Positions 22,043 through 62,304 of a stretch of 64,000 bases of DNA are shown in pieces (within the stretch, counting starts at the first letter, position 1; each line of letters starts with the position of its first letter). The stretch is taken from positions 1-64,000 of the forward strand of contig NZ_AUFK01000002.1 of the NCBI RefSeq assembly GCF_000426465.1, written 5' to 3'. Below the pieces are notes generated by a model. The model saw only the letters and a list, made by a program, of their open reading frames with translations, was not told where the DNA came from and searched no databases. The translations under genes were made by a program, and so were the position numbers. This stretch comes from Epilithonimonas caeni DSM 17710. Its GTDB lineage: Bacteria; Bacteroidota; Bacteroidia; Flavobacteriales; Weeksellaceae.

Positions 22043-22522
22043 ATGTCTTTTTTCATGAGTAGAACACCTAGGACGACAGCGGTTGAGAAGCAAAAGAGAT
22101 TAGCTGAAATTAAGAAATGGCTGATTGATGAGGTTCCGAGTTCTACCATTTCAGAAAGGATTGAAAAGAAATATGGATTATCAAAAAGGCAGGGAGATCG
22201 ATATGTTGCAGAAGCTTCAAAATACTGGTTGAATCAAGTTGATGAAGATTTTACTGTCAAATTGAATAAACGGATAGATAGTCTAAAGAATGATATTCAG
22301 AATCTAAGTGCAAAAGAAAAAAAGTCAGCAAAGGGAATCAGGACCATTCTAGCCATCAAAAAGGAAATATCAAGATTGGAAGGTCTTTATCCTGTTAAAA
22401 AGGTTCAACATTCTGGTGACAAAGATAATCCGGTTGTGGTAAATTCCACATCATTCAAAAGTGAGCAGGACGAAGAAGATTTCAAAGAGTTCGTAACAAA
22501 AAAATATAATTTCAAAACATAA
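22043..22522 (+). CDS. terS: Terminase small subunit
   Basis: The 159-residue protein starts with a helix-turn-helix segment (WLIDEVPSSTISERIEKKYG, then LSKRQGDRYVAEA) followed by a charged coiled coil and a C-terminal tail, the plan of small terminase subunits that bind the packaging site and regulate the large subunit. An alternative start at ATG 22055 (MSRTPRT) is equally plausible. TerL follows 1.3 kb downstream with a long non-coding RNA-like interval between, an unusual separation. Confidence 0.75.
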   Translation: MSFFMSRTPRTTAVEKQKRLAEIKKWLIDEVPSSTISERIEKKYGLSKRQGDRYVAEASKYWLNQVDEDFTVKLNKRIDSLKNDIQNLSAKEKKSAKGIRTILAIKKEISRLEGLYPVKKVQHSGDKDNPVVVNSTSFKSEQDEEDFKEFVTKKYNFKT

Positions 22523-22749
22523 ATCAAAGCACGATCGACAGGTTAGTAATATCGAAACATTCAAGAACTATTTTAAATTAATTTTTTCAAACTGTCAGCG
22601 TAGGTGTTATCGTGCTTTTTAAAATATACATCCAGTAAGGTTTGCGCCCGGAGTATCCTTTGGAGAAAGATGGGGTGTCCTGTGATAGGTTCTTTTGAGT
22701 AAGATTAAATGCCTTGGATTTTCAGCCTAATGAGAAAGCAAACCAAATC

Positions 22750-22825
22750 GGGGAAGTAGGCGAATGATAGAGCCCCCTCTTAGTTGAGCGGTAATAAGTT
22801 GCAGGTTCAAGTCCTGCCTTCTCCA
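22750..22825 (+). ncRNA. tRNA-like module 1 (76 nt, abnormal D and anticodon arms)
   Basis: A 7-bp acceptor stem (GGGGAAG with CTTCTCC, one G-U) and a perfect T arm (GCAGG-TTCAAGT-CCTGC) are intact. The D arm lacks the usual GG pair. The anticodon arm pairs poorly (CCCTC against AGCGG with a C-C mismatch and an off-size loop), so no anticodon can be assigned. It is a degenerate tRNA or a tRNA-mimicking domain of the larger RNA. Confidence 0.55.
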
Positions 22826-22844
22826 CAAACATTTTTTTGAGAAA

Positions 22845-22909
22845 GGACCATGCAACGGAAAAAAGGTTGATCACCTTGTAAGTTGCAAATTATAGAGGTT
22901 GTATGGTCC
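22845..22909 (+). ncRNA. Long hairpin domain within the candidate RNA
   Basis: GGACCATGCAAC (22845-22856) pairs with GTTGTATGGTCC (22898-22909) over 12 bp with one G-U. Inside is a nested hairpin AAGG-7nt-CCTT (22863-22877). Confidence 0.6.
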
Positions 22910-22955
22910 GCAGTTAATTCTGTTAGCATTTAAGAAATCAAAACAAAATGCAGGG

Positions 22956-23080
22956 GGGGACGTAGCTCAGGGGTAGAGCGGTTGAGGAAGATAAAGCGAG
23001 TAGGTGCAGAATAAGGTACAATAAAAGCAGGAAAGCATAATTTCAATACACAGGTCATGGGTTCGATTCCCATCTCTCCA
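22956..23080 (+). ncRNA. tRNA-like module 2 with about 60-nt insertion in the anticodon arm
   Basis: The D arm is canonical (GCTC-AGGGGTA-GAGC, 22965-22979) and the T arm is perfect (ATGGG-TTCGATT-CCCAT, 23057-23073); the acceptor stem GGGGA/TCTCC is partly paired. In place of a 17-nt anticodon arm there is a 5-bp stem GTTGA/TCAAT closing a 57-nt insert. The insert is too small for a group I intron and shows no bulge-helix-bulge that I can identify. The 3' end (CTCCACAAA) closely matches that of module 1. Confidence 0.55.
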
Positions 23081-23119
23081 CAAAATCCGGAAGGTTGACT
23101 CTTGAAAAAGGGAAAAGAA

Positions 23120-23169
23120 GATTCTCATGTTTAATTTGAGGTTTTATGGTTATTAGTTTTTGCCCGGCT
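23120..23169 (+). repeat. 50-nt element shared with host flank, copy A
   Basis: Matches 52047-52096 outside the prophage at 46 of 50 positions, without gaps. Both copies run directly into an intrinsic terminator. A 10-codon frame (MFNLRFYGY here) lies inside, but both differences that fall within it change amino acids, so protein conservation is doubtful. Confidence 0.85.
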
Positions 23170-23191
23170 GAAATATTTCGGTCGGGTTTTT
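23163..23191 (+). terminator. Rho-independent terminator
   Basis: CCCGGCTGAA-ATAT-TTCGGTCGGG (10 bp with two wobble pairs) followed by five T. It ends the non-coding interval before the next small gene. Confidence 0.85.
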
Positions 23192-23219: not shown

Positions 23220-23537
23220 ATGCAAGACATTAAAAACAAAAAATTTGAAATTGATAATTATTTTGATTTCACGATTATGGATGAATACGCCAACAGATGG
23301 GATGGAGATTCCGAACCAATTGAAGTATCAATTGGAATAAGTTCAAATGATGAATCTTGTAGCATAGCAGAAGTTAAGGTTAAAGACTTTGATGACTTAA
23401 CAAAATGGCAAGTTACTCAAGTTGCTGATAATGCTACAGAAATAGAAGTGCGTGAATTCTTGAAAGAGAAACATGCAGAATTAAAAGATTTGCTATACGA
23501 AAAACTGAATAACCCTGATAGTAACGGCCAGTGTTAA
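23220..23537 (+). CDS. Hypothetical acidic phage protein
   Basis: A 105-residue protein with a beta-strand-like first half (EVSIGISSNDESCSIAEVKV) and a helical end. It is the first gene after the terminator. Function unknown. Confidence 0.65.
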   Translation: MQDIKNKKFEIDNYFDFTIMDEYANRWDGDSEPIEVSIGISSNDESCSIAEVKVKDFDDLTKWQVTQVADNATEIEVREFLKEKHAELKDLLYEKLNNPDSNGQC

Positions 23538-49881: not shown

Positions 49882-49963
49882 TATATTTGCGTTAAGTTTA
49901 ACTCATTGCTGAATATAAACTTAACTTTAATAGCGACAGATCCAACATTGTCGCTATTTTTTT
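49882..49963 (+). ncRNA. Candidate small RNA unit beside the integrase
   Basis: A TATATTTG box (49882-49889) directly follows the hicB terminator. Downstream come a perfect 10-bp inverted repeat GTTAAGTTTA/TAAACTTAAC (49891-49900 with 49916-49925) and a terminator AATAGCGACA/TGTCGCTATT with seven T (49929-49963). No gene fits between. The predicted RNA of about 70 nt ends antisense to the last codons of the integrase gene. The inverted repeat might instead be a protein-binding site; both readings are inference. Confidence 0.55.
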
Positions 49964-51218
49964 ATCCGACCTCGATATTCTTTAGGAACTCAAGCTGCCT
50001 TTTGCTTCTGCCAACCGTATATATTGATGTTGTTTTATCAGTTGTGTGTGAAGCTGCGGTTTGGGCAATATTAAAGTCGATAGGGATAACATTTGACGAA
50101 TTTTGAATTTGGTCCAGTTTATCCAAATAAAGATATTTCCATGAATAGAAATCTTCTGTAATGGGAATAACATTACCATTCTCATCTTTGATATTATCCG
50201 TATTTTTTACATATTTTGACCATCTATGTGTTATCCTAGATGGAGATATCGAATAATTGCCTGGAACAAGACCTTCAGAGAATATATAATCATCTTCAGA
50301 AGTACAAAGCTCACATAGCTCTTTCCAATATTTCAATGAGCCTATATTTATGGCTTTAGTAACCCATTTATAATAGCTTCCTTTCTGTATTTGGATAACA
50401 TATTCGTGTTTTTCGATATTGACATGCTTTTTCTGTATCCGGAACAGCTCGGAAGATCGCGAACCACTTCTATAGAATATCTCTTTATATCTGAAGAAAC
50501 TATAATGTCTTTCCTTTAAAAATTTGTCAATATATGGGAGCTTCTCATCCGAAATGATTTCCCTGATCTTTGGAATGACCTTTCTCTTATCGATCTCCCT
50601 GACCGGATTATTCTCAATACATCCCCTTTGAACCAATATCTTGAAGATATCTTTCAGATATTGCCTGAACTTATTGAAGTAACTTGGACCTAATTTCAGA
50701 TGGTCCAATGTATTTACGATATGCCATATCTTGACCGTGGAAATATTGATATAGGAATAGTTCATTTCATCGATACCCTTTTCGAATCTATTAATGGCAA
50801 TCCTTACTTCATTCAGATGTTTATCGGACCCGGAAAGATGCAAACGTGCTTTCTGCAAAGCTGATTTGAAGTCAGTATCCGGATTCAGTTCGCTTGATTC
50901 GTCCACCATATATTTTTGCGTGATGGGATTGTAATGATAATCGTCCAGAAGCCTTTCCATTTCACTTCTATAAACAACAGCGGCCTCCTTTAGTTCTGCT
51001 AGTGTCGTAAATCCATTCAACCGTTTCCGGAACTGGTAACCTGAAGGGTGTTTCACTTGGAATTTCGGATCATGGAAACGACATTCTATGAAACAATCTT
51101 TTTGTAATGTGATGTTTGACCTTGCTGTAAGGAGGTCTTTAGGTGAAAAGTAGAATTGAGTTCTGGAACATCCGTTCCTGAGGTCTTTTCTAGGGACCCT
51201 TTGTTTTGTCTTTTTCAT
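49962..51218 (-). CDS. int: Phage tyrosine integrase
   Basis: The 418-residue protein has an N-terminal arm-binding part, a core-binding helical domain (HLNEVRIAINRFEKGIDEMN) and a catalytic domain with RSGSRSSELFRIQ (first Arg), a strand with Lys (GSYYKWVTKAI) and SHTTDKTTSIYT with the nucleophilic Tyr. The usual H-x-x-R box reads YSWKY, with Lys in place of the second Arg, a substitution that appears in many Bacteroidetes integrases. It recombines attP with the tRNA gene. Its start lies 14 bp from arm-type repeats at attR, so it may repress itself. Confidence 0.92.
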   Translation of the reverse strand: MKKTKQRVPRKDLRNGCSRTQFYFSPKDLLTARSNITLQKDCFIECRFHDPKFQVKHPSGYQFRKRLNGFTTLAELKEAAVVYRSEMERLLDDYHYNPITQKYMVDESSELNPDTDFKSALQKARLHLSGSDKHLNEVRIAINRFEKGIDEMNYSYINISTVKIWHIVNTLDHLKLGPSYFNKFRQYLKDIFKILVQRGCIENNPVREIDKRKVIPKIREIISDEKLPYIDKFLKERHYSFFRYKEIFYRSGSRSSELFRIQKKHVNIEKHEYVIQIQKGSYYKWVTKAINIGSLKYWKELCELCTSEDDYIFSEGLVPGNYSISPSRITHRWSKYVKNTDNIKDENGNVIPITEDFYSWKYLYLDKLDQIQNSSNVIPIDFNIAQTAASHTTDKTTSIYTVGRSKRQLEFLKNIEVG

Positions 51219-51328: not shown

Positions 51329-51372
51329 GTGGTCCCACCTGGGCTCGAACCAGGGACCACCTGATTATGAGT
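51329..51372. other. attR core (44 bp, within tRNA)
   Basis: Right copy of the integration core. Together with host bases 51373-51403 it keeps the tRNA gene whole, as usual for phages that insert in tRNA 3' ends. Confidence 0.95.
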
Positions 51373-51403
51373 CAGGTGCTCTAACCAACTGAGCTATAGG
51401 ACC
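51330..51403 (-). tRNA. tRNA-Met (CAT anticodon)
   Basis: The 74-nt cloverleaf has acceptor GGTCCTA/TGGGACC, D arm GCTC/GAGC, anticodon arm CCTGA-CTCATAA-TCAGG with anticodon CAT, variable loop TGGTC and T arm CCTGG-TTCGAGC-CCAGG. No CCA is encoded. CAT can also mean an isoleucine tRNA whose C34 is changed to lysidine, which sequence alone does not settle. The phage core supplies the 3' half. Confidence 0.93.
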
Positions 51404-52046: not shown

Positions 52047-52096
52047 GATTCTCATGTTTAATTTGAGTTTTCATGGTTATTAGTTTTTACCCAGCT
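52047..52096 (+). repeat. 50-nt element shared with the prophage, copy B
   Basis: Matches 23120-23169 at 46 of 50 positions and, like that copy, runs into an intrinsic terminator. It lies outside the prophage, about 700 bp beyond attR. The inner 10-codon frame reads MFNLSFHGY here. Confidence 0.85.
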
Positions 52097-52626: not shown

Positions 52627-53826
52627 TTAATCCCTTTTTTCTGAAACTGATGAGTATCCGCTATTATATAATCCCATCTTTAAACACCCATCCACATACA
52701 CCTGCGGAATTTTCTCCTGTTCCAGCCTGTTTTTTTCCAAAGTCTTTAAATATTGGAAAAGATCATTTTCCTCTTTGGTCAGGAGGTTTAAATTATTGGA
52801 TTGATTTCTGGCGCCGCTTACGGCGTAGTTTTGGAAAGTTTCAAAAGTCGTCCGGTCCATCATGACACTTTGGGCATGCGGATGGTACGACCGTAGCTGA
52901 TGCAGAATCTGAAAGCCATGTTCATCGATATCGCCCCAATATCTGATCTTTTTGCCCGACAGCCAGGGAGCATTTTTTAGATAGGAAATATTAAAACCTC
53001 CTCCGCTCCAGATAGCGACAGTGGATCCTAATAGTGGTAAGGTTAAAAAATTCATTTTATTCTCTGCTATCAGAACGTTTCCTGCATGCAGTTCAAGGGT
53101 TTCGAAATCGGATAGTGGAATGCTGATGTCCCTGAACTTGAAATCCGGATGCGGGTTTTCATCCAGAAAGCGGAGCCTGATCAACGGTTCATCGTACCGC
53201 AAAAAGAATCGCTCGGCAAAACGTTTTTGTTGAGCTGAACGCACATGATCCTGAATTAGGAAATCGAGTAAGGATTGAATCAGCGCATTATTTTCTTCAA
53301 TAAATTTGGTGTGAATCTCAATAGGTAGTTGCCGCAGGTAAAGGTTGGGCCGGGGTGTCTCCATGAAAAATTGGCAAACCTTCAGCACATCTTTCCAGTT
53401 GATTTCTCCTTTTGTTAACCATAAGCAATTGTTTAAGGTCCAGTCTTTCAATTCCGGAATAGTATTGATAATGGTTTTATAATTGTCTATAAAAAGACGC
53501 CATTCCTTTGTACAGCCAATAAAATAAATATAATCATCAATCGTTTCGAAAACCAGGGTATCCGGCAAATCATGACTGCCCGTCCGCCTGAAATTCCGAC
53601 CGGCAGTCTGCACGAGATAGCCTTTACCGGTTTGGTTTTTAGAAAAGCGGTATAACTCTTCTATTTCCTTTTGCAGGATTTCAAATCGCTCTGTAATTTG
53701 ACCCGATTTTACTTTTCCGATGCGGTCTATTATTTTCGGGAAAAAGGGTTCTCCATGGATATGGCTTTGCAGTAAAGGCTTCCACCATTTCAATGCCTGT
53801 TTTTTTATTTCTGCCGGACTAATCAT
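52627..53826 (-). CDS. jetD: Wadjet JetD, DUF3322/DUF2220 topoisomerase-like nuclease
   Basis: The 399-residue protein has the N-terminal DUF3322 region and a C-terminal Toprim-like DUF2220 domain with AENKMNF near 254-260 (catalytic Glu) and WGDIDEHGF near 295-303 (D-x-D metal site). JetD is the nuclease of Wadjet: after the SMC part reels in a small circular DNA it cuts it. It overlaps jetC by 4 bp (ATGA), in the standard jetA-B-C-D order. All key residues are in place. Confidence 0.92.
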   Translation of the reverse strand: MISPAEIKKQALKWWKPLLQSHIHGEPFFPKIIDRIGKVKSGQITERFEILQKEIEELYRFSKNQTGKGYLVQTAGRNFRRTGSHDLPDTLVFETIDDYIYFIGCTKEWRLFIDNYKTIINTIPELKDWTLNNCLWLTKGEINWKDVLKVCQFFMETPRPNLYLRQLPIEIHTKFIEENNALIQSLLDFLIQDHVRSAQQKRFAERFFLRYDEPLIRLRFLDENPHPDFKFRDISIPLSDFETLELHAGNVLIAENKMNFLTLPLLGSTVAIWSGGGFNISYLKNAPWLSGKKIRYWGDIDEHGFQILHQLRSYHPHAQSVMMDRTTFETFQNYAVSGARNQSNNLNLLTKEENDLFQYLKTLEKNRLEQEKIPQVYVDGCLKMGLYNSGYSSVSEKRD

Positions 53827-56800
53827 ATTTCAGGAGTATTAGGGAAAATTCCGTTATGTTTATCGCGTTCGCTCTCATATTCTTCTTTGGTGAAATTACT
53901 CACCTGCGAATTGTTGCCTTCCCGGTTGCTCACAAAGTGAAAGGAGTTGACATGACCTTCTATTACATGGATTTTCTGCAGCGGTGTTACAATCAGCAGT
54001 TGGAGATTAAGCTTTTTAAACAACTCCAGTCCGTAACGGGTACTTTCGTCGCTGCCTCTTCCAAAGGCTTCATCAATCACCACGAAACGGAAACTTTTAC
54101 TCTTGCGCTCTCCGAACTGCAAGCCAAACTGGTAGGCCAAAGCACTGGCCAGAATGGTGTAGGCTAGTTTTTCCTTTTGTCCGCCGCTTTTTCCGCCTGA
54201 ACCTTCATAAAATTCTTTTTCCGTACCATCGGAGCGGTAACGTTCGCTGGCGTTGAATTCAAACCACTGGCGTACATCGGTAACGGTTGAAGTCCAGTCG
54301 CGGTCTGCGTTTTCCATACTGGCAAAACGGTCTAAAATCCTTTTCACCTGTTCGTATTTTTCTTCCGTGTATAGATCATTATGGCTGCTGAAGGAATGGA
54401 TATAACATTTTTTCAACTCTTCCCTGAAAAGCCGTACTTCTTTATTTGGAGTAGCATCCATTAAAATGGTGATATAGGTATCCTGAACGGCATTATACAC
54501 AATCTCCGAAAGATGTTCGTTTATGGTCCTGATTTTCTGTTTGATGTCTTTTTCGTGTTTCTGCAGCTGGCTGTCGAAGACGGCAATGCTGTTGATCAGG
54601 TTTTTGTTCAGCTCTTCCTTAAAGCGTTCTTCGTGCCGTTTCAGATCTTCAGACTCCAGTTGTCTGAATTTTATGATGTATTCGGCACGGGCATCGATGC
54701 TATCGGTAACTTCGCTGTATTCAGCCCGGGAATGTTCCTTGATTTCCCGCATCTTTTTTTCAATATTTGTTCGATGCCCCGCCTGTCGTCCGCGAAGTCT
54801 TTTCAATTCGCCGCTCTCTCCCTGAAATTGTTTGCGGAATTCTTCCTGCCTGTTCTCTATGCCCCTGAGGTTGATTTTCACTCCACTGAGTTTTTCATCG
54901 ATCAGTGGATACCATTTTTCTTTCAGGTGAGGCGATAATTGTTCTTTTTGCTGTATGGCCTGGTGTTGCTGATCCCGATAGTTTTGAATATTCGTTTTAA
55001 ATCCTCCGATATCTTCTGTAAACTGATTGCGCCTATCCCTTCCTTCCATAATCTGCTGGTCTACCTCACTTTTGTTGCGTTCCAGCTGGGCAAGCTTATC
55101 ATCTTTATTCAATAATTGATCACGTTCCTGTTCCAATTCGTAGATTTTAGCAACATGATATTGCCAGTTGATGCGGGAAAAGTCTTTCACATAAAGCAAA
55201 AGCCCCAGCAATTGCTTCTGTTCACTGTTCTTTTTCTCTTTTTCTTCAAAATCCTTTAGTCTGGATTCGAGTTCACGGATGGTTAGTTCCAGCTTATCGA
55301 CCGAATTTTCCAATACTTTTATTTTTTCAGCATTGCTCCAGCCCAATACATAATTACGCCGGTCGTCAATCCGTTTGCGGTCATCTTTGGTATGCCGGAT
55401 GCGGCCGCTCTTAATCAGCCCTTGCCGGGTGATCCCGAAAGGAACATGTTGTAAACCATCAACATCGGTACAAATATAATCGCCGAAGCTGCGTTGCAGG
55501 TAACTTTCCAGCCAATCGTAAAAAGGTGTCTCAGGTTTAATGTCTATTTTATATGCGATGCTGTCTTCATCCAATTCTTTAAGGATTCGAGCATTGCCAT
55601 TCCAATCTGCTTCCAAATAGGTCAGCTTGATGCCCCTTCCATCCGCACCCTTCAATGGATTGCTGTTAACGTAATGGCTGACACTCCGGTAATGCTTTCC
55701 GGGAACCAGTAAGCTGATGCCTGCATCACGGAGCAGTTTTTCAATCGCGCCTTCCCATTCGGTTTCCTGTTCATTCACTTTCAGCAATTCTCCTGCAAAG
55801 GGTAAATCTTCTTCATCAATCCGCAGATCGGCACAGAGTTGTGAGCGAAAGGCTACCAGCCAGGCCGGAATCTGGGTTTTACGTTCTTTGAGTGATTGCA
55901 GTTCTTTTCGTTCCATCTGAAATTCCGCTTCCTGCTTGCGCAGCTCAGTCACCTGGTTGTCCCGCTGTTCCCGCAGCTCTTCTTCCAGACGGCCGCATTT
56001 TTCCATTGATTCATTGGCACGCCTGATGTTGTTCTGAAAATCACTTTCCTGTTTTATGCTTGATAACCCAGTTTGTAAAGCGAGATATTCATATTGATCG
56101 AAATCCCTTTGCTTAATTTCTTTGTCTTGCTCATGTCGCTTCACTTCTCCGGCAATCTGTTCGATCCGTGTTCCGCCGTTGCTCGCAATGTCCTGTATAA
56201 TGGTTTGCCGGCGTTGTTCCCAGGCTTCTATTTCATGGGTAATGGTGCGCAGCTGTTGTGTGGTCTTTTCCAGTTCCTGATGCGATTCTGTGATGGCCTG
56301 TTCCAGCAGTTCCCATTTCTTTTCGGCAAACCAGACCGGCATCACCTCCAGCATGGCTTCGATGTCCTCAATTTCACGGGTAACCTTTTCATAGGTTTCG
56401 CTAGCTTCTGCTAAGGGCTTCAGGATCTGGTATTGTTCCCGGGTATGCACCACCGCGGCGTGGGCTTTATTGAGGTCATCAAAACGTTTCAGTAAGGCCT
56501 CGATCTGTTCCTTTACATCGGTTTTTTCCAGCATCTGTTCACGGACAAAATCAGTCAGGCTGCTGACGGACTTCATGGAAACGGTCTGATAAAACAAGTC
56601 GATCGCTTTATCACTATTCATGCCGAAAAGCCTGCGGAACTGTTCGCTGTATTGCGAGAAATTATCATTAAATAATTGGATGCCGGGTATGTTGCGCAGG
56701 TTCTTCCGCAACTCATTGATATCGCTGAAATGCTGGAAATGGTCTTTAATGGTTAAAGGGATTGTTCCGATGATGAGCAGTTTTTCTACTTTTCCCTCTT

Positions 56801-57227
56801 TGCCGATCCAGAAAAACTGGGCCAGGCAAATGTGTTCGTTATAGCCCTGGTTATAAAAATTTCCGATAATTATGGTATAGGTATGATCATCCGGGCGGAG
56901 GTAGACCTTCTTGGCGGTTTTGGTGATTTCTTCCTTCTCTTTTTTAAATTCTCCTCTCACGTAACTCAGCAGGTTGCGCTCTTTACCTTCGGCACCGGCA
57001 GCTTTATTAAAGATGATTTTATGATGAGGCACGAGCAGGCAAGTCAGGGCATCCACCAGCGTAGATTTCCCTGAACCGATATCGCCTGTCAGCAGGGCAT
57101 TTTGTCCGTTGGGCTGAATCTGCCAGCGCACCTGGTTAAAAGTCCCCCAGTTGAGCACTTCCAGGTATTGAAGCCGGTAACCGGCCAGGTTGAAGTCTTC
57201 CGGATGGGTATCAAATAGTTCTTCCAT
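53823..57227 (-). CDS. jetC: Wadjet JetC, SMC-like ATPase
   Basis: The 1134-residue protein is MukB/SbcC-like: Walker A TGDIGSGKST (47-56), very long coiled-coil arms, signature SGGQKEKLAYTI near 1010 and Walker B FVVIDEAFG near 1050. It is the loop-extruding motor that tests the size and closure of circular DNA. It lies 8 bp after jetB. No frameshift or missing motif was seen. Confidence 0.93.
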   Translation of the reverse strand: MEELFDTHPEDFNLAGYRLQYLEVLNWGTFNQVRWQIQPNGQNALLTGDIGSGKSTLVDALTCLLVPHHKIIFNKAAGAEGKERNLLSYVRGEFKKEKEEITKTAKKVYLRPDDHTYTIIIGNFYNQGYNEHICLAQFFWIGKEGKVEKLLIIGTIPLTIKDHFQHFSDINELRKNLRNIPGIQLFNDNFSQYSEQFRRLFGMNSDKAIDLFYQTVSMKSVSSLTDFVREQMLEKTDVKEQIEALLKRFDDLNKAHAAVVHTREQYQILKPLAEASETYEKVTREIEDIEAMLEVMPVWFAEKKWELLEQAITESHQELEKTTQQLRTITHEIEAWEQRRQTIIQDIASNGGTRIEQIAGEVKRHEQDKEIKQRDFDQYEYLALQTGLSSIKQESDFQNNIRRANESMEKCGRLEEELREQRDNQVTELRKQEAEFQMERKELQSLKERKTQIPAWLVAFRSQLCADLRIDEEDLPFAGELLKVNEQETEWEGAIEKLLRDAGISLLVPGKHYRSVSHYVNSNPLKGADGRGIKLTYLEADWNGNARILKELDEDSIAYKIDIKPETPFYDWLESYLQRSFGDYICTDVDGLQHVPFGITRQGLIKSGRIRHTKDDRKRIDDRRNYVLGWSNAEKIKVLENSVDKLELTIRELESRLKDFEEKEKKNSEQKQLLGLLLYVKDFSRINWQYHVAKIYELEQERDQLLNKDDKLAQLERNKSEVDQQIMEGRDRRNQFTEDIGGFKTNIQNYRDQQHQAIQQKEQLSPHLKEKWYPLIDEKLSGVKINLRGIENRQEEFRKQFQGESGELKRLRGRQAGHRTNIEKKMREIKEHSRAEYSEVTDSIDARAEYIIKFRQLESEDLKRHEERFKEELNKNLINSIAVFDSQLQKHEKDIKQKIRTINEHLSEIVYNAVQDTYITILMDATPNKEVRLFREELKKCYIHSFSSHNDLYTEEKYEQVKRILDRFASMENADRDWTSTVTDVRQWFEFNASERYRSDGTEKEFYEGSGGKSGGQKEKLAYTILASALAYQFGLQFGERKSKSFRFVVIDEAFGRGSDESTRYGLELFKKLNLQLLIVTPLQKIHVIEGHVNSFHFVSNREGNNSQVSNFTKEEYESERDKHNGIFPNTPEI

Positions 57228-57235
57228 AAATAAGT

Positions 57236-57805
57236 TTAGTCTTTCGGTTGGTTTTCATCGGCATGGTTCCGGAACTTTTGCAAGGTTTCATCGATCACAT
57301 CGGCATTCACAAAACCTTTGATGATCCGGTGTATTTCGTAGTTTTTCTCCTGGTCTTCCAGTTTTCTGAGGAATCCGATGTCCAGGACTTTATTAATGGC
57401 AGTGTTGATCTTTTCCTGCTGTTTGGCTTCATCATGAACAGTGGGCAAGAATACTTTTACCCGGTTGATGATTTCCTGTTCGCTGATGATGGAACGCATG
57501 GAGCCGCCCTGTGCATCATGTTCCAGTAAGAACTTTCTCAGGACGATACAGACCAGAGAGGTCATGAAATTGAGCGGCCGCTTATCGGCCATTCTCGGCA
57601 GGGGTTTTTCGTCTTCCTCCCATTCTTTCTGGCGGAGAAAAGCATACCCTTCGCTTTTATCCAGGAAGAGTTCCAGCCCGATCGGGATAAAATATTTCTT
57701 TACATCGGGTTCGTATTGCAGCAGATTTTCCCAGGTTTCTTTCTGGTGGCTGTACACAATTCCTTTCAATAAGGCAATGAGGCTGGTGGAGTAGCGGTAT
57801 TCCAT
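57236..57805 (-). CDS. jetB: Wadjet JetB, DUF4194 kite-like subunit
   Basis: The 189-residue protein has the winged-helix pattern of DUF4194 (LNFMTSLVCIVLRKFLLEHD and FLRKLEDQEKNYEIHRIIKG). It corresponds to MukE in the MukBEF-like complex and bridges JetA and JetC. Two bases separate it from jetA. Confidence 0.9.
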   Translation of the reverse strand: MEYRYSTSLIALLKGIVYSHQKETWENLLQYEPDVKKYFIPIGLELFLDKSEGYAFLRQKEWEEDEKPLPRMADKRPLNFMTSLVCIVLRKFLLEHDAQGGSMRSIISEQEIINRVKVFLPTVHDEAKQQEKINTAINKVLDIGFLRKLEDQEKNYEIHRIIKGFVNADVIDETLQKFRNHADENQPKD

Positions 57806-57807
57806 AT

Positions 57808-59232
57808 TTATCTGTTAAAGATGATGAGCGGGGTTTGCATGCGATAGGTTTTTCCGGTGCTGAGGTTTTCGATGATGTGGTATTCGGGCTGATCGCGGTT
57901 GACGAAATGTTTGCCTTCGTTGGTGGCGATCTGCATGTAGCCCAATATTTCAGCAACGCCTTTGGTGGGCCTGTAATGATGGAGCAGCTCGGAAAGCGCA
58001 ACCTGTGAGCGGTTTTTTAAGAGCGTTTTTACATGGCTTCTCAAGATTTCCACATCCACATAAAACTGTTCAAACAGCAGGTCGGTATCAGCCGTAGCCA
58101 CGCCGTCTGCAATTTCGGTGGCTGCAAAGGCAACCTTAATTGGTGGATTGAAAAGCGGGCGGTCCATGGTAAAGGAAGGTTTAAAAACCTCATCGATTTC
58201 CATCCATGCGGCTTGCTGATCAAGCGTTTCTTTGTGCTGGAGCAGCAGGCTTTCCATTTCTTCAATGCTTTGGAGGATATGGCGGCTTTCGGAAAGGTTT
58301 TTTTGTTCTACAAATTTCCGGAGCTGTTCAATCAGGCCGTCGTTGCTCCGGTTTACTTTATCTCCGGCATCCACCAGGTTGGTTTTGATGCGGTCTACGG
58401 TCTGTTCTTTTTTGATTTCGGCAATCGCCGGGATGGTATTGATCTTATCCAGCAAATCTTCGAGTTCTTCCTGCATCTGTTCGCTCATCAGAAACTCCCA
58501 GAACGCTTTAAAACTCTTTCCCTGATCGGTATTCCAAAGAAAATCCTGCTGCTGGAAAACATTGTCGAGCAGGTCTGCTTTGGCCAGATGGCTTTTGATA
58601 ATGGTCTGGCGGGTCTGGCTATCGAGTTCCCTGAAATTTTCTTCGACCTGCCTGAAATCGGAGAGTAAACGTTTTGCAGTTTCCTCGGCCAGGAAATAGT
58701 TTTCTTTCAGTTGGGTATCGGAAGGTTGTGCATAATTGCCCTGGCGGATCTGTTCAATTTCCTGATCAATCTTCCGGCGTTCTTCCAGCAACTGCTGGAT
58801 GCGCTCGTAAGGTCCGGAAGTGGTGTTCACAATGCGCTGCAGCAAATCAAAAAACTGGATGAGCCGGCTGTGGGTACCTACAAATTGCTGTTTATTGAGA
58901 TCTTCGAGCCACTTCAAGGCATTTTCCGTTGCCGGGGAAAGTTCATACACAGGTTCGTCTGCCCGTTCATAATAGCGGCGAAGGTAGCCCTGCTCGGCCC
59001 ACTTCTGTAAGTAATCTACCGGTGCTTTCTGGTAATCTTCAATACCCAGCCTTTGGAGGGAAAAAATATAATCGCCCAGAATGCCTTGCAATTCGGTTTG
59101 CAGGTATGAAATCCTGTCTTGCTGTTTGAAAACCAAATGGAAAAAACTCACTAGCAACGGGAAGTGTTCTGCCCGCAGAAGTTGCAGAGTTTTGTCGTTT
59201 TTGTAGAGGGAGAGCGCTTTTTCGTAGTTCAT
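57808..59232 (-). CDS. jetA: Wadjet JetA, DUF3375 kleisin-like subunit
   Basis: The 474-residue protein matches DUF3375 in size, winged-helix start (YEKALSLYKNDKTLQLLRAE), central coiled coil and C-terminal wing (LSELLHHYRPTKGVAEILGY). It acts as the kleisin, closing the JetC ring. It is first in the four-gene operon. The 149 bp before it show no clear TAnnTTTG box on this strand. Confidence 0.92.
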   Translation of the reverse strand: MNYEKALSLYKNDKTLQLLRAEHFPLLVSFFHLVFKQQDRISYLQTELQGILGDYIFSLQRLGIEDYQKAPVDYLQKWAEQGYLRRYYERADEPVYELSPATENALKWLEDLNKQQFVGTHSRLIQFFDLLQRIVNTTSGPYERIQQLLEERRKIDQEIEQIRQGNYAQPSDTQLKENYFLAEETAKRLLSDFRQVEENFRELDSQTRQTIIKSHLAKADLLDNVFQQQDFLWNTDQGKSFKAFWEFLMSEQMQEELEDLLDKINTIPAIAEIKKEQTVDRIKTNLVDAGDKVNRSNDGLIEQLRKFVEQKNLSESRHILQSIEEMESLLLQHKETLDQQAAWMEIDEVFKPSFTMDRPLFNPPIKVAFAATEIADGVATADTDLLFEQFYVDVEILRSHVKTLLKNRSQVALSELLHHYRPTKGVAEILGYMQIATNEGKHFVNRDQPEYHIIENLSTGKTYRMQTPLIIFNR

Positions 59233-59919: not shown

Positions 59920-62304
59920 TTATGGAGTAATTTCAACACCAATACTTTTTAATAAAGCATCATATTGTTCATTATCTTTCTCCTTTATCTTATCCAATAC
60001 AAAGGCAGCGACTTTCTTCATTTCAGGAACATCAATAGGAATCATACTTCGCTCAAAAATTCCTTCAAGATGTGAGTATTCATTATTAATCCGATCTGTC
60101 ATTGAAGAAGCCTGCCTATCGTTTCCAAAAAATCTATTCAGCTTATCGTCATGTTCAATAGCATTAGGATATTTATAAAATAAGAATGCTTCAAGAAATT
60201 TACGAGTGTTGTTTGCAAAATTATAGTATACTATATGCTGATCGTCATCATCGGTATCTGCGTTTGCACAAATGTATATTTGGTGAAAGAGATAATTGAA
60301 TTCCGTTACATAATCCTTCAGATATTTGGGCATCATTTTAATTCTACTTTTTTCGCCTTCTCTTATTGTGATAAAATATCTACTTTGATTTTTATTTAAA
60401 GCTCCCGGTAAGCGTTTAAGATATTTCAGAAAATCTAAATTGTGAGTAGAAATAAACAATTGCTCGAATTCCTGACTAGCAACAATTTCAGAATTTATCA
60501 AACTATATATGAAGAAGATATGATTTCCATCCAAACTTGAAATAGGATCGTCAATCCAAATAATTGGTTTTTTACCTTTAGTTTCTATATCTTCAAGCTT
60601 AGCCATAAAATAACAGAATGCAATTAAGCTACACTCTCCTTCACTAAGATGATGTGCTTTGCTTCCACTTCTAACAATTTCAAATCTGATTTTCTTACCA
60701 TTTGTAATTGTATCTTGATCTTCAACTGCTTTTAAAGTCAAGAAATCATGACCAAAATAATTGTTGAGATATTCATTTACTTTTAAGGCACCTTTTTCCT
60801 CATCATTCATTAGTCGTTGTTTGCTTTCAATAAGTGCAATTTGATCTCTGATTTTATCAGAGATAGCTTTTCCAATTTCAATCTTCTCATCAAGTTCATC
60901 TTTTAGTTTTCCAATATTTTTCACTTCATCTTCGTATCGTATATTCTTCACAAAATCATGAACTTCCTTTAATCTTAGTGCAGTTTTAGAATTGGATTGA
61001 TCAGTTGCTAATGTGTCTGTGTAAGCATTAGATTCTCTACGGATGCTATCATAAAAATCAAATATCTTTAACAGTCTAGCAGATACATCATAAGGAGGGA
61101 TAAACTTGCCTGTTGTTATAATATCGTCAGCTCTAGAATCAAGTTGTTCTTTTAAAGAATTTAATGATTCAATATATTGCCCAAGTATGCGATCTCTTAG
61201 TACCGCTAGCCGATTAAGACTATTGTGAAACTTCGAATAAAATTTATTATTTTCAAAAGATAAAATGTCAGATACAGAGAGTATTTCTTGCTGTATTTTA
61301 TTCAAAAGTATGTCAATTGCTTTACTTAGTCTTTCTGATTCCTCATCAAAATGGCTTTCTAAGGCTGACCATCTTTCATTGGTAATTCTATTTCCACAAA
61401 AAGAACAATCTTCTAATTTATGTTCATGCAGCAATTTCCCTTCCTTAACCCATTTATTTAAAATAGAATTCTTAACCAATTCCTCAATTTTGCCAGATTT
61501 TATTAATGATTTATTTACTAGCTGTTCACATTGTGCACTTAATTCTGCAAATTGAAAATTGGGGTTTGATGTTTCCGAAATATTTGCATTAGGCTTTTCG
61601 TTTAAAAGATTTAAAAGATCTTGTTGTTTTTCATCATTAATTGGCGTAAAGTTTTCCGATAAGGTTAAAGCAATGTCAGCATCAAGTTTTGCCTTATTAT
61701 AGTTTTGGTCTCCAAATCTTTCAGGCTTATATTTTATACCAATATCTCTGCTAGTTGCCTTTTGAGTTAATTTGGCATCCAATTGCTTGGATGCTGTATC
61801 AAATGCTGATTTTGCTATGTTGTAAACTTCGAGCATATTTTTTCGCTCTAAATAAAAACCAGTTGGCGTCTCGTCATCATTCTGACCTAGTTCGTTATTG
61901 AGAATCTCTATTTCCTCTTCTATATTAGCATTCCCACCTAATATTGCAAAGGGAACAATACTTTCATCAGCATTAGAGATAAATCTTAAATTTTCTTTAA
62001 CAAAATCTTCATTAAAGACTCTTATTTTTTTATCATGACCTAACAGATTTAATTGATTTACATCTGGTGAGTCAGAAAAAGAAAGTGTAAATTCAGGATT
62101 TTCATATTTGTCTGATATTTTGCCGAGTTCAAGCGCTCTAATTATCCTGGACAGTGTTGTTTTGCCTGAATAATTTCTACCATATAAGATATTCACAGTA
62201 CTACATTCAGTAATTGTACCATGTGTATCTCGCATTGCTGAATCCCAATTGAAATCTTGAAATACAGCAAGATTTTTAATACTCTTGATTTTTTTAATAG
62301 CCAT
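59920..62304 (-). CDS. AAA_13-family ATPase, RloC-like architecture
   Basis: The 794-residue protein has Walker A YGRNYSGKTT (41-50), a central coiled coil with zinc-hook-like C300-SF-C303, signature LSEGECSLIAF near 549, Walker B IIWIDDPISSLDG near 585 and the H-loop STHNLDF. The C-terminal part holds R701-KFL-E705 and NEYSH745, an R-x3-E plus His set similar to the anticodon nuclease site described for PrrC and RloC. A zinc-hook plus that set suggests a tRNA-cutting defence protein. Other AAA_13 proteins share the C-terminal pattern without proven nuclease activity, so this stays tentative. It is clearly more A+T-rich than the sbcC and jet genes around it. Confidence 0.65.
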   Translation of the reverse strand: MAIKKIKSIKNLAVFQDFNWDSAMRDTHGTITECSTVNILYGRNYSGKTTLSRIIRALELGKISDKYENPEFTLSFSDSPDVNQLNLLGHDKKIRVFNEDFVKENLRFISNADESIVPFAILGGNANIEEEIEILNNELGQNDDETPTGFYLERKNMLEVYNIAKSAFDTASKQLDAKLTQKATSRDIGIKYKPERFGDQNYNKAKLDADIALTLSENFTPINDEKQQDLLNLLNEKPNANISETSNPNFQFAELSAQCEQLVNKSLIKSGKIEELVKNSILNKWVKEGKLLHEHKLEDCSFCGNRITNERWSALESHFDEESERLSKAIDILLNKIQQEILSVSDILSFENNKFYSKFHNSLNRLAVLRDRILGQYIESLNSLKEQLDSRADDIITTGKFIPPYDVSARLLKIFDFYDSIRRESNAYTDTLATDQSNSKTALRLKEVHDFVKNIRYEDEVKNIGKLKDELDEKIEIGKAISDKIRDQIALIESKQRLMNDEEKGALKVNEYLNNYFGHDFLTLKAVEDQDTITNGKKIRFEIVRSGSKAHHLSEGECSLIAFCYFMAKLEDIETKGKKPIIWIDDPISSLDGNHIFFIYSLINSEIVASQEFEQLFISTHNLDFLKYLKRLPGALNKNQSRYFITIREGEKSRIKMMPKYLKDYVTEFNYLFHQIYICANADTDDDDQHIVYYNFANNTRKFLEAFLFYKYPNAIEHDDKLNRFFGNDRQASSMTDRINNEYSHLEGIFERSMIPIDVPEMKKVAAFVLDKIKEKDNEQYDALLKSIGVEITP

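What the first reader, a model, noticed from the sequence alone, without database searches (positions are those of the whole stretch)
22526..23191. Large structured non-coding RNA candidate between terminase subunits
About 670 nt with no gene lie between terS and the next small gene before terL, where phages usually have none. The interval is packed with long complementary segments (10, 7, 12 and 6 bp) in a nested order, holds two tRNA-like modules, starts right after a stop codon and ends at a strong terminator. GOLLD and ROOL RNAs, known from phages and prophages, are of similar size and GOLLD examples can contain tRNA-like parts. I see no direct match to them, so this could be a new class of ornate phage RNA, perhaps tied to packaging or virion assembly.
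Basis: partly seen in the sequence, partly recalled or inferred. Interest (0 to 1): 0.85.

Follow-up and report, generated by a model that had tools for sequence, protein, structure and literature searches.

The report
Phage tRNA-like RNAs without usable anticodons
A gene-free stretch of this prophage is a small cassette of tRNA look-alike RNAs whose decoding part is missing or replaced, set between conserved RNA hairpins; many other phages carry similar look-alikes with very varied inserts, and what they do is unknown.

Summary
The gap is real, gene-free and holds structured RNA, but it is not one GOLLD-like RNA. It is a modular tRNA cassette: leader D5 (22526-22618), a tRNA-like element with a 6-nt anticodon loop (TLS1, 22750-22825), a three-way-junction hairpin H (22845-22909), a second tRNA-like with a long anticodon-arm insert (TLS2, 22956-23080), and a trailer T ending in a terminator (23120-23190). 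H and D5, and hairpin K of relatives (not found in the window), covary: 0 of 500 shuffles or swaps reach the observed scores. Relatives occur in other Weeksellaceae prophages.

The same design is widespread. One Leu-like scaffold (AGTCAGG...CCTGACT) occurs in 166 distinct elements from 140 fetched loci; ARAGORN calls a tRNA in only 35. Of 115 parsed, my rule finds a canonical anticodon arm in 2; middles are 16-139 nt, and 106 inserts of 30 nt or more form 96 sequence families. I read these as processed, non-decoding, tRNA-scaffolded RNAs, possibly decoys or inhibitors in phage-host conflict. Structure is well supported; function is inference.

The parts
22526..22618 (+). D5: leader element; outer stem AAAGCACGAT/ATCGTGCTTT enclosing GACAG/CTGTC and a small 3' hairpin
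   Evidence: in 15 relatives (window included) the inner helix is 5.13 pairs on average against 3.24 when partners are swapped, outer 9.53 against 8.49, 0 of 500 swaps reach either
22639..22744 (+). spacer domain closed by GGTTTGC/GCAAACC (7 bp); no relative found
   Evidence: read; the nearest relative L017 lacks it
22750..22825 (+). TLS1: tRNA-like; 7-bp acceptor, D arm, T arm, anticodon arm with a 6-nt loop (ARAGORN: two-base anticodon 'ag')
   Evidence: Rfam tRNA 37.3 bits; ARAGORN tRNA-???; anticodon domain CCTCTTnGwTGAGnGGTAATAAG shared with L140, L047 and L237 on other scaffolds
22845..22909 (+). H: three-way junction; 12-bp outer stem, NGAAAA linker, hairpin AAGGT-TGATC-ACCTT, second hairpin with TGCA in its loop
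   Evidence: covariance model R1: 13 matches in 48 loci; covariation 0.493 against 0.234, 0 of 500 shuffles, 9 sequences
22956..23080 (+). TLS2: tRNA-like with a long insert in the anticodon arm and an imperfect acceptor stem
   Evidence: Rfam tRNA 32.9 bits with the insert skipped; ARAGORN only with lowered threshold and a 55-nt intron; relative L017 has an intact tRNA-Trp after H
23120..23190 (+). T: trailer GATTCTCATGTTTAATTTGAGGTTTTATGGTTATTAG plus terminator; also a stand-alone element of the host family

Best explanation
The interval is a phage tRNA cassette whose tRNA units are, in this phage, tRNA-like elements that cannot decode normally. Shown: D5 and H are conserved structured elements, as is K in relatives; T is a conserved trailer with a terminator; TLS1 and TLS2 keep tRNA acceptor, D and T arms (TLS2 imperfectly) but lack a standard 7-nt anticodon loop; relatives at the same place carry either ordinary tRNAs or tRNA-likes with other, often much longer, anticodon domains; an analogous scaffold-plus-variable-insert design occurs in many environmental phages. 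Inferred: the transcript is cut by host tRNA-processing enzymes (RNase P at the 5' ends, RNase Z or exonucleases at the 3' ends) into stable tRNA-scaffolded RNAs; the replaced anticodon domain is the working part and changes fast because it meets a fast-changing partner, most plausibly host factors that act on tRNAs (tRNA-cutting or tRNA-sensing defences), as decoy or inhibitor. My own weights: non-decoding tRNA-scaffolded RNA about 0.7; decoy or inhibitor in phage-host conflict about 0.35.
For: Rfam and ARAGORN on the window. Covariation of H, D5 and K (0.724 against 0.219, 0 of 500). Near cassette marks, 32 distinct elements with acceptor 7/7 and T stem 5/5: 13 canonical (71-75 nt) and 19 not (69-172 nt); 11 of the 19 exceed 90 nt, no canonical one does. 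One scaffold with changing middles: the GGGAAAGTAGCTCAG...CTTTTCCAC scaffold carries a canonical Cys arm in L176 and L206 and middles of other kinds in L170, L173, L218 and L227. AGTCAGG set: 206 3'-scaffold hits, 166 distinct full elements, 115 parsed, 2 canonical by my rule; scaffold positions up to 2 bits, insert mostly under 0.2 bits, 106 inserts in 96 families, mean folding z -0.81 against dinucleotide shuffles. Phages with these elements also carry ordinary tRNA sets. Mono-shuffled loci give 0 hits in 1.68 Mb.
Against: No expression or processing data. ARAGORN of the 166 AGTCAGG elements as tRNAs, with scattered anticodons (9 of them with 2 or 4 bases), and 4 of the 19 non-canonical cassette elements, one of which (L205, 72 nt) is an ordinary tRNA-Cys missed by my rule. 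My rule also rejects 17 background elements that ARAGORN accepts. L122's element before H is called tRNA-Tyr(ata). TLS2 has an imperfect acceptor stem and could be a decaying tRNA. The window's elements do not use the AGTCAGG scaffold; the link is by architecture. End closure (23 against 20.0) and GNRA hairpins (8 against 4.8) of inserts are not above shuffles. No defence target was tested.
Confidence: 0.55

Rival explanations
1. Decaying tRNA genes: relaxed selection has left a conserved tRNA cassette with broken tRNAs.
For: TLS2 is degenerate while the close relative L017 has an intact tRNA-Trp after H; phage tRNAs are gained and lost easily (recalled).
Against: Acceptor 7/7 and T stem 5/5 stay intact in 19 non-canonical cassette elements and in the long background elements (intactness was the search criterion, so this is weaker than it looks). 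One anticodon domain is shared by four phages on different scaffolds. Homologous inserts of the AGTCAGG set differ by changes that keep pairs, as in L351/L286/L306 (few sequences, by eye). Inserts fold better than shuffles on average.
Confidence: 0.2
2. Intron-bearing tRNAs: the inserts are spliced out by an unknown route and ordinary tRNAs result.
For: With a lowered threshold ARAGORN reads TLS2 as tRNA-Leu(CAA) with a 55-nt intron, and with introns allowed the element before H in L177 as tRNA-Val(cac) with a 7-nt intron.
Against: No conserved exon ends: the inserts carry little information right up to the scaffold; canonical anticodon arms inside the inserts are not enriched (3 against 1.9 in shuffles); inserts of 16-139 nt are too small for known self-splicing introns (recalled); changed loops of 4, 6, 8 and 9 nt are not explained.
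Confidence: 0.1
3. Packaging RNA: H works with the terminase, somewhat like the pRNA of phage phi29 (a three-way-junction RNA with intermolecular loop pairing; recalled).
For: H is a three-way junction with palindromic loop sequences: TGATCA in most members and TAATTA in L043. A terminase gene lies within about 2.3 kb of H in 9 of 12 distinct loci.
Against: H is absent from many cassettes, including several beside TerS (L214, L218, L219, L227, L231). The terminase families differ (phrog_38, 979, 2, 6672). The terminase region could simply be an insertion spot for cargo; no background rate was measured. No kissing interaction was tested.
Confidence: 0.08
4. One large GOLLD/ROOL-like RNA.
For: Size, phage origin and nearby tRNA modules resemble GOLLD (passages of PMC12286853).
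Against: No Rfam match at E up to 5; no global fold better than shuffles; modules come apart in relatives.
Confidence: 0.03

Closest known systems
Phage tRNA arrays, including tRNAs with altered anticodon loops that escape host nucleases (PMC10264068; listing and a term search only)
   Same: tRNA genes of phages, with changes concentrated in the anticodon region.
   Different: Here many elements have no standard anticodon loop and up to about 140 nt in its place, so decoding looks impossible for most.
tmRNA
   Same: A tRNA-like end with the anticodon arm replaced by another functional domain.
   Different: The best window match is 22.2 bits against a gathering score of 47; D arms are ordinary and no tag ORF was identified.
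Bacterial Y RNAs (YrlA), tRNA-mimicking partners of Ro proteins
   Same: A tRNA-like module in a non-coding RNA; the host encodes a TROVE/Ro protein.
   Different: YrlA match only 18.1 bits against 69, E 0.87; a Ro-binding stem was not looked for further.
GOLLD and ROOL RNAs
   Same: Phage-borne, structured, near tRNA islands; some GOLLD RNAs hold tRNAs in a linker (PMC12286853, passages).
   Different: No sequence or model match; modular cassette rather than one fold.

Membership tests
decoding tRNA | 7-bp acceptor, D, T arms | tested here: met
   TLS1. TLS2 only partly: ARAGORN and the MFE show an imperfect acceptor.
decoding tRNA | 5-bp anticodon stem with a 7-nt loop | tested here: not met
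   TLS1 has a 6-nt loop with a mismatch in the stem; TLS2 has a long insert.
GOLLD / ROOL | match to the Rfam covariance model | tested here: not met
   no match among 11 rows at E up to 5, none at gathering.
tmRNA | match to the Rfam model at gathering score | tested here: not met
   22.2 bits against 47; permuted form 12.9 against 47.
YrlA (bacterial Y RNA) | match to the Rfam model at gathering score | tested here: not met
   18.1 bits against 69.
intron-bearing tRNA | canonical tRNA after removing one segment, with conserved exon ends | tested here: inconclusive
   TLS2 readable so only with a lowered threshold; in the AGTCAGG set no conserved ends.
phi29-type packaging RNA | binds the packaging motor and is needed for packaging | not testable with these tools
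   only position near terminase and a junction fold are known.

The most novel reading that the evidence does not exclude
Phages, above all of Bacteroidota and of environmental waters, carry a widespread and apparently undescribed class of tRNA-scaffolded RNAs: a fixed tRNA-like frame in which the anticodon domain is a hypervariable structured payload, processed by the host tRNA machinery and used against fast-evolving host factors such as tRNA-targeting defences. The window holds a prophage version with its own leader (D5), junction (H) and trailer (T). The host range and water origin of the metagenome contigs are guesses, not tested.
Probability: 0.35. Interest if true: 0.9.

Novelty: new variant of a known kind. 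Interest (0 to 1): 0.7.

Why it matters
Why phages keep tRNAs is an old question, and annotation tools pass over tRNA-like genes whose anticodon domain is missing or huge. A fixed scaffold with hypervariable inserts, several per phage, makes a direct test possible: which inserts are expressed, how they are processed, and which host factor they meet.

Tried and rejected
GOLLD, ROOL, OLE, HEARO: no Rfam match. INPHARED: no match to the interval or to a T-like query; the scaffold query gave only weak or partial matches in uncultured huge phages, crAss-like and Tenacibaculum phages, and T-arm matches to ordinary tRNAs.

T as a leader peptide (MFNLSFHGY) or as a general antisense to gene starts: rejected. 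Start codon or frame is lost in L004, L005, L140 and others; the complementary pattern occurs 17 times in the own genome, 5 of them T copies, against 10 for the control pattern.

Beyond the family: model R1 found 9 of 320 family genomes at E up to 0.05, one of which (G203) lies in what looks like coding sequence and was dropped; in 346 genomes of the order 3 match, all in the family and already known.

In the other 15 no terminase was found, but many of those loci are short or only partly tested (ORFs of 130 aa or more, a chosen few of them). Those 31 include near relatives such as L218 and L227.

Rows left out of counts: 19 of the 206 AGTCAGG hits without a 5' part, 51 of 166 elements whose D arm my pattern did not parse; G085 was dropped from the D5 test because it lacks the TCAG anchor, after the first run failed on it.

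Literature: ten searches of the open library listed no paper that I could recognise, from title and abstract start, as describing insert-bearing phage tRNA-likes; subscription papers are not held. PMC12286853 and PMC12851939 were read in passages; PMC10264068 was term-searched with no hit; others were seen as listings only.

Full report
What is there. The window is a prophage (integrase 49962-51218 beside a tRNA-Met at 51329-51403; gene reading partly by eye) in a genome of the Chryseobacterium family: a TerL relative lies in Chryseobacterium sp. R2A-55, and the same prophage stretch, identical, is in IMG/VR (L035). Between the presumed terS (22043-22522) and the ORF at 23220 there is no plausible gene. 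Rfam finds two tRNA-family matches there and nothing else at the gathering scores. The whole interval folds no better than shuffles, so one global fold is not supported.

Relatives. DNA, TerL, pattern and covariance-model searches brought in related cassettes. Twelve distinct loci hold H: window, L017, L043, L101, L092, L140, L122, L173, L206, L177, L201 and L205 (L173 and L206 share the same H, by equal score and length; L209 is a second copy of L177). In eight of the twelve, the element directly before H is not called a tRNA by ARAGORN or is given no standard anticodon; in two it is an ordinary tRNA (L201 Trp, L205 Cys), in L122 ARAGORN calls tRNA-Tyr(ata), and L206 is unresolved. An ordinary tRNA stands somewhere in nine of the twelve cassettes (for L206 by my rule only), not in the window or L173.

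Structure. H: 9 sequences, covariation 0.493 against 0.234 in shuffles, 0 of 500; sliding the partners lowers it to at most 0.387. RNAalifold on the same alignment predicted only the first hairpin, because the outer stem is out of register in several rows of the fitted alignment. D5: 15 sequences, see parts. K, a hairpin between tRNA and T in ten relatives, not found in the window: 0.724 against 0.219, 0 of 500; slid versions at most 0.244. In four phages the anticodon domain CCTCTTnGwTGAGnGGTAATAAG is shared although the scaffolds differ (window, L140, L047, L237). An inserted motif GGTAGTAAGGTCG...CAACTAAAACA sits in the D loop of L140 and in the anticodon loop of L017 (read). L017's TerL is about 91% identical to the window's, yet its TLS1 differs entirely in the middle.

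Trailer. T matches stand-alone sites in the host: 258 of 296 family genomes have a match to the interval, and the listed places nearly all cover only T; the own genome holds four further copies. In the phage collection the core of T occurs in 25 stretches; in 17 of them I see a tRNA or tRNA-like just upstream, in four T follows a coding region, and four look unrelated (by eye).

The wider class. A script that asks for acceptor 7/7, a D stem and a T stem 5/5 finds 32 distinct elements near cassette marks, 13 canonical and 19 not, and 323 elsewhere in the held loci, 260 canonical and 63 not. ARAGORN agrees with all 13 and with 258 of the 260, and accepts 4 of the 19 and 17 of the 63. Thirty of the 63 share one scaffold beginning [AG]GTCAGG. 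ARAGORN of them tRNAs, with some thirty different anticodons. The scaffold is nearly invariant and the inserts are not: 106 inserts of at least 30 nt form 96 families at E 1e-4 and fold on average 0.81 standard deviations better than dinucleotide shuffles. Several elements can occur in one phage, interspersed with an ordinary tRNA set.

Position. A terminase gene lies within about 2.3 kb of 16 of 31 cassettes: window, L017, L043, L101, L007, L140, L201, L205, L206, L214, L218, L219, L227, L231, L237, L238. Others sit beside a 987-1012 aa phrog_28855 protein (L216, L221, L228, L239), a reverse transcriptase (L222), an exonuclease (L223), an endolysin (L233) or unknown genes. In L101 and L140 the gene in front is a small protein with a DnaA-type helix-turn-helix.

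Mechanism. Shown: conserved structured leader, junction and trailer; tRNA frames; replaced anticodon domains; rapid change of these domains. Inferred: processing by the host tRNA machinery and a role of the payload in conflict with host factors. The published background is that tRNAs are targets of several bacterial defences and that phage tRNAs can counter them (PMC10264068 abstract start; PMC12851939 passages; PMC11555353 abstract start). The host of this prophage encodes, next to it, a complete Wadjet set and a protein with a weak PrrC match over a more distant best match, PDC-S06; no link to the cassette is shown.

Verdict. The structural claim is strong for H, D5 and K, good for the non-decoding nature of the tRNA-likes, and open for function.

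Noticed in passing
window 52047-52096, and L003, L004, L005: Stand-alone copies of the T trailer with terminator in the host genome; matches in 258 of 296 family genomes, nearly all listed places covering only T. Two copies (L002, L003) have a GG-N10-GT spacing upstream, reminiscent of sigma-54 promoters (by eye). Looks like an uncharacterised small RNA.
   Followed up: partly
L145, L248, L258, L114, L085, L267 and 134 other loci: AGTCAGG-scaffold tRNA-likes with hypervariable inserts in environmental phages, up to 7 complete-looking copies in 12.7 kb of L145.
   Followed up: partly
window 22862-22874 and relatives: Loops of H hold palindromes (TGATCA; TAATTA in L043; TGCA or GTAC in the second hairpin), which could pair between two molecules.
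   Followed up: no
window 52627-59232 (-): Complete Wadjet (JetD, JetC, JetB, JetA) beside the prophage.
   Followed up: partly
window 59920-62304 (-): 794-aa protein, best PADLOC match PDC-S06 (2.6e-303), weak PrrC match 1.2e-11 over residues 503-776.
   Followed up: partly
G000:C1:237069-237836: TROVE/Ro60-domain protein in the host genome; a Y RNA was not searched for.
   Followed up: no
L214 (-) tRNA-like: A second T arm inside the insert of a tRNA-like; extra T-arm-like hairpins occur in 3 of 106 AGTCAGG inserts against 0.1 in shuffles.
   Followed up: partly
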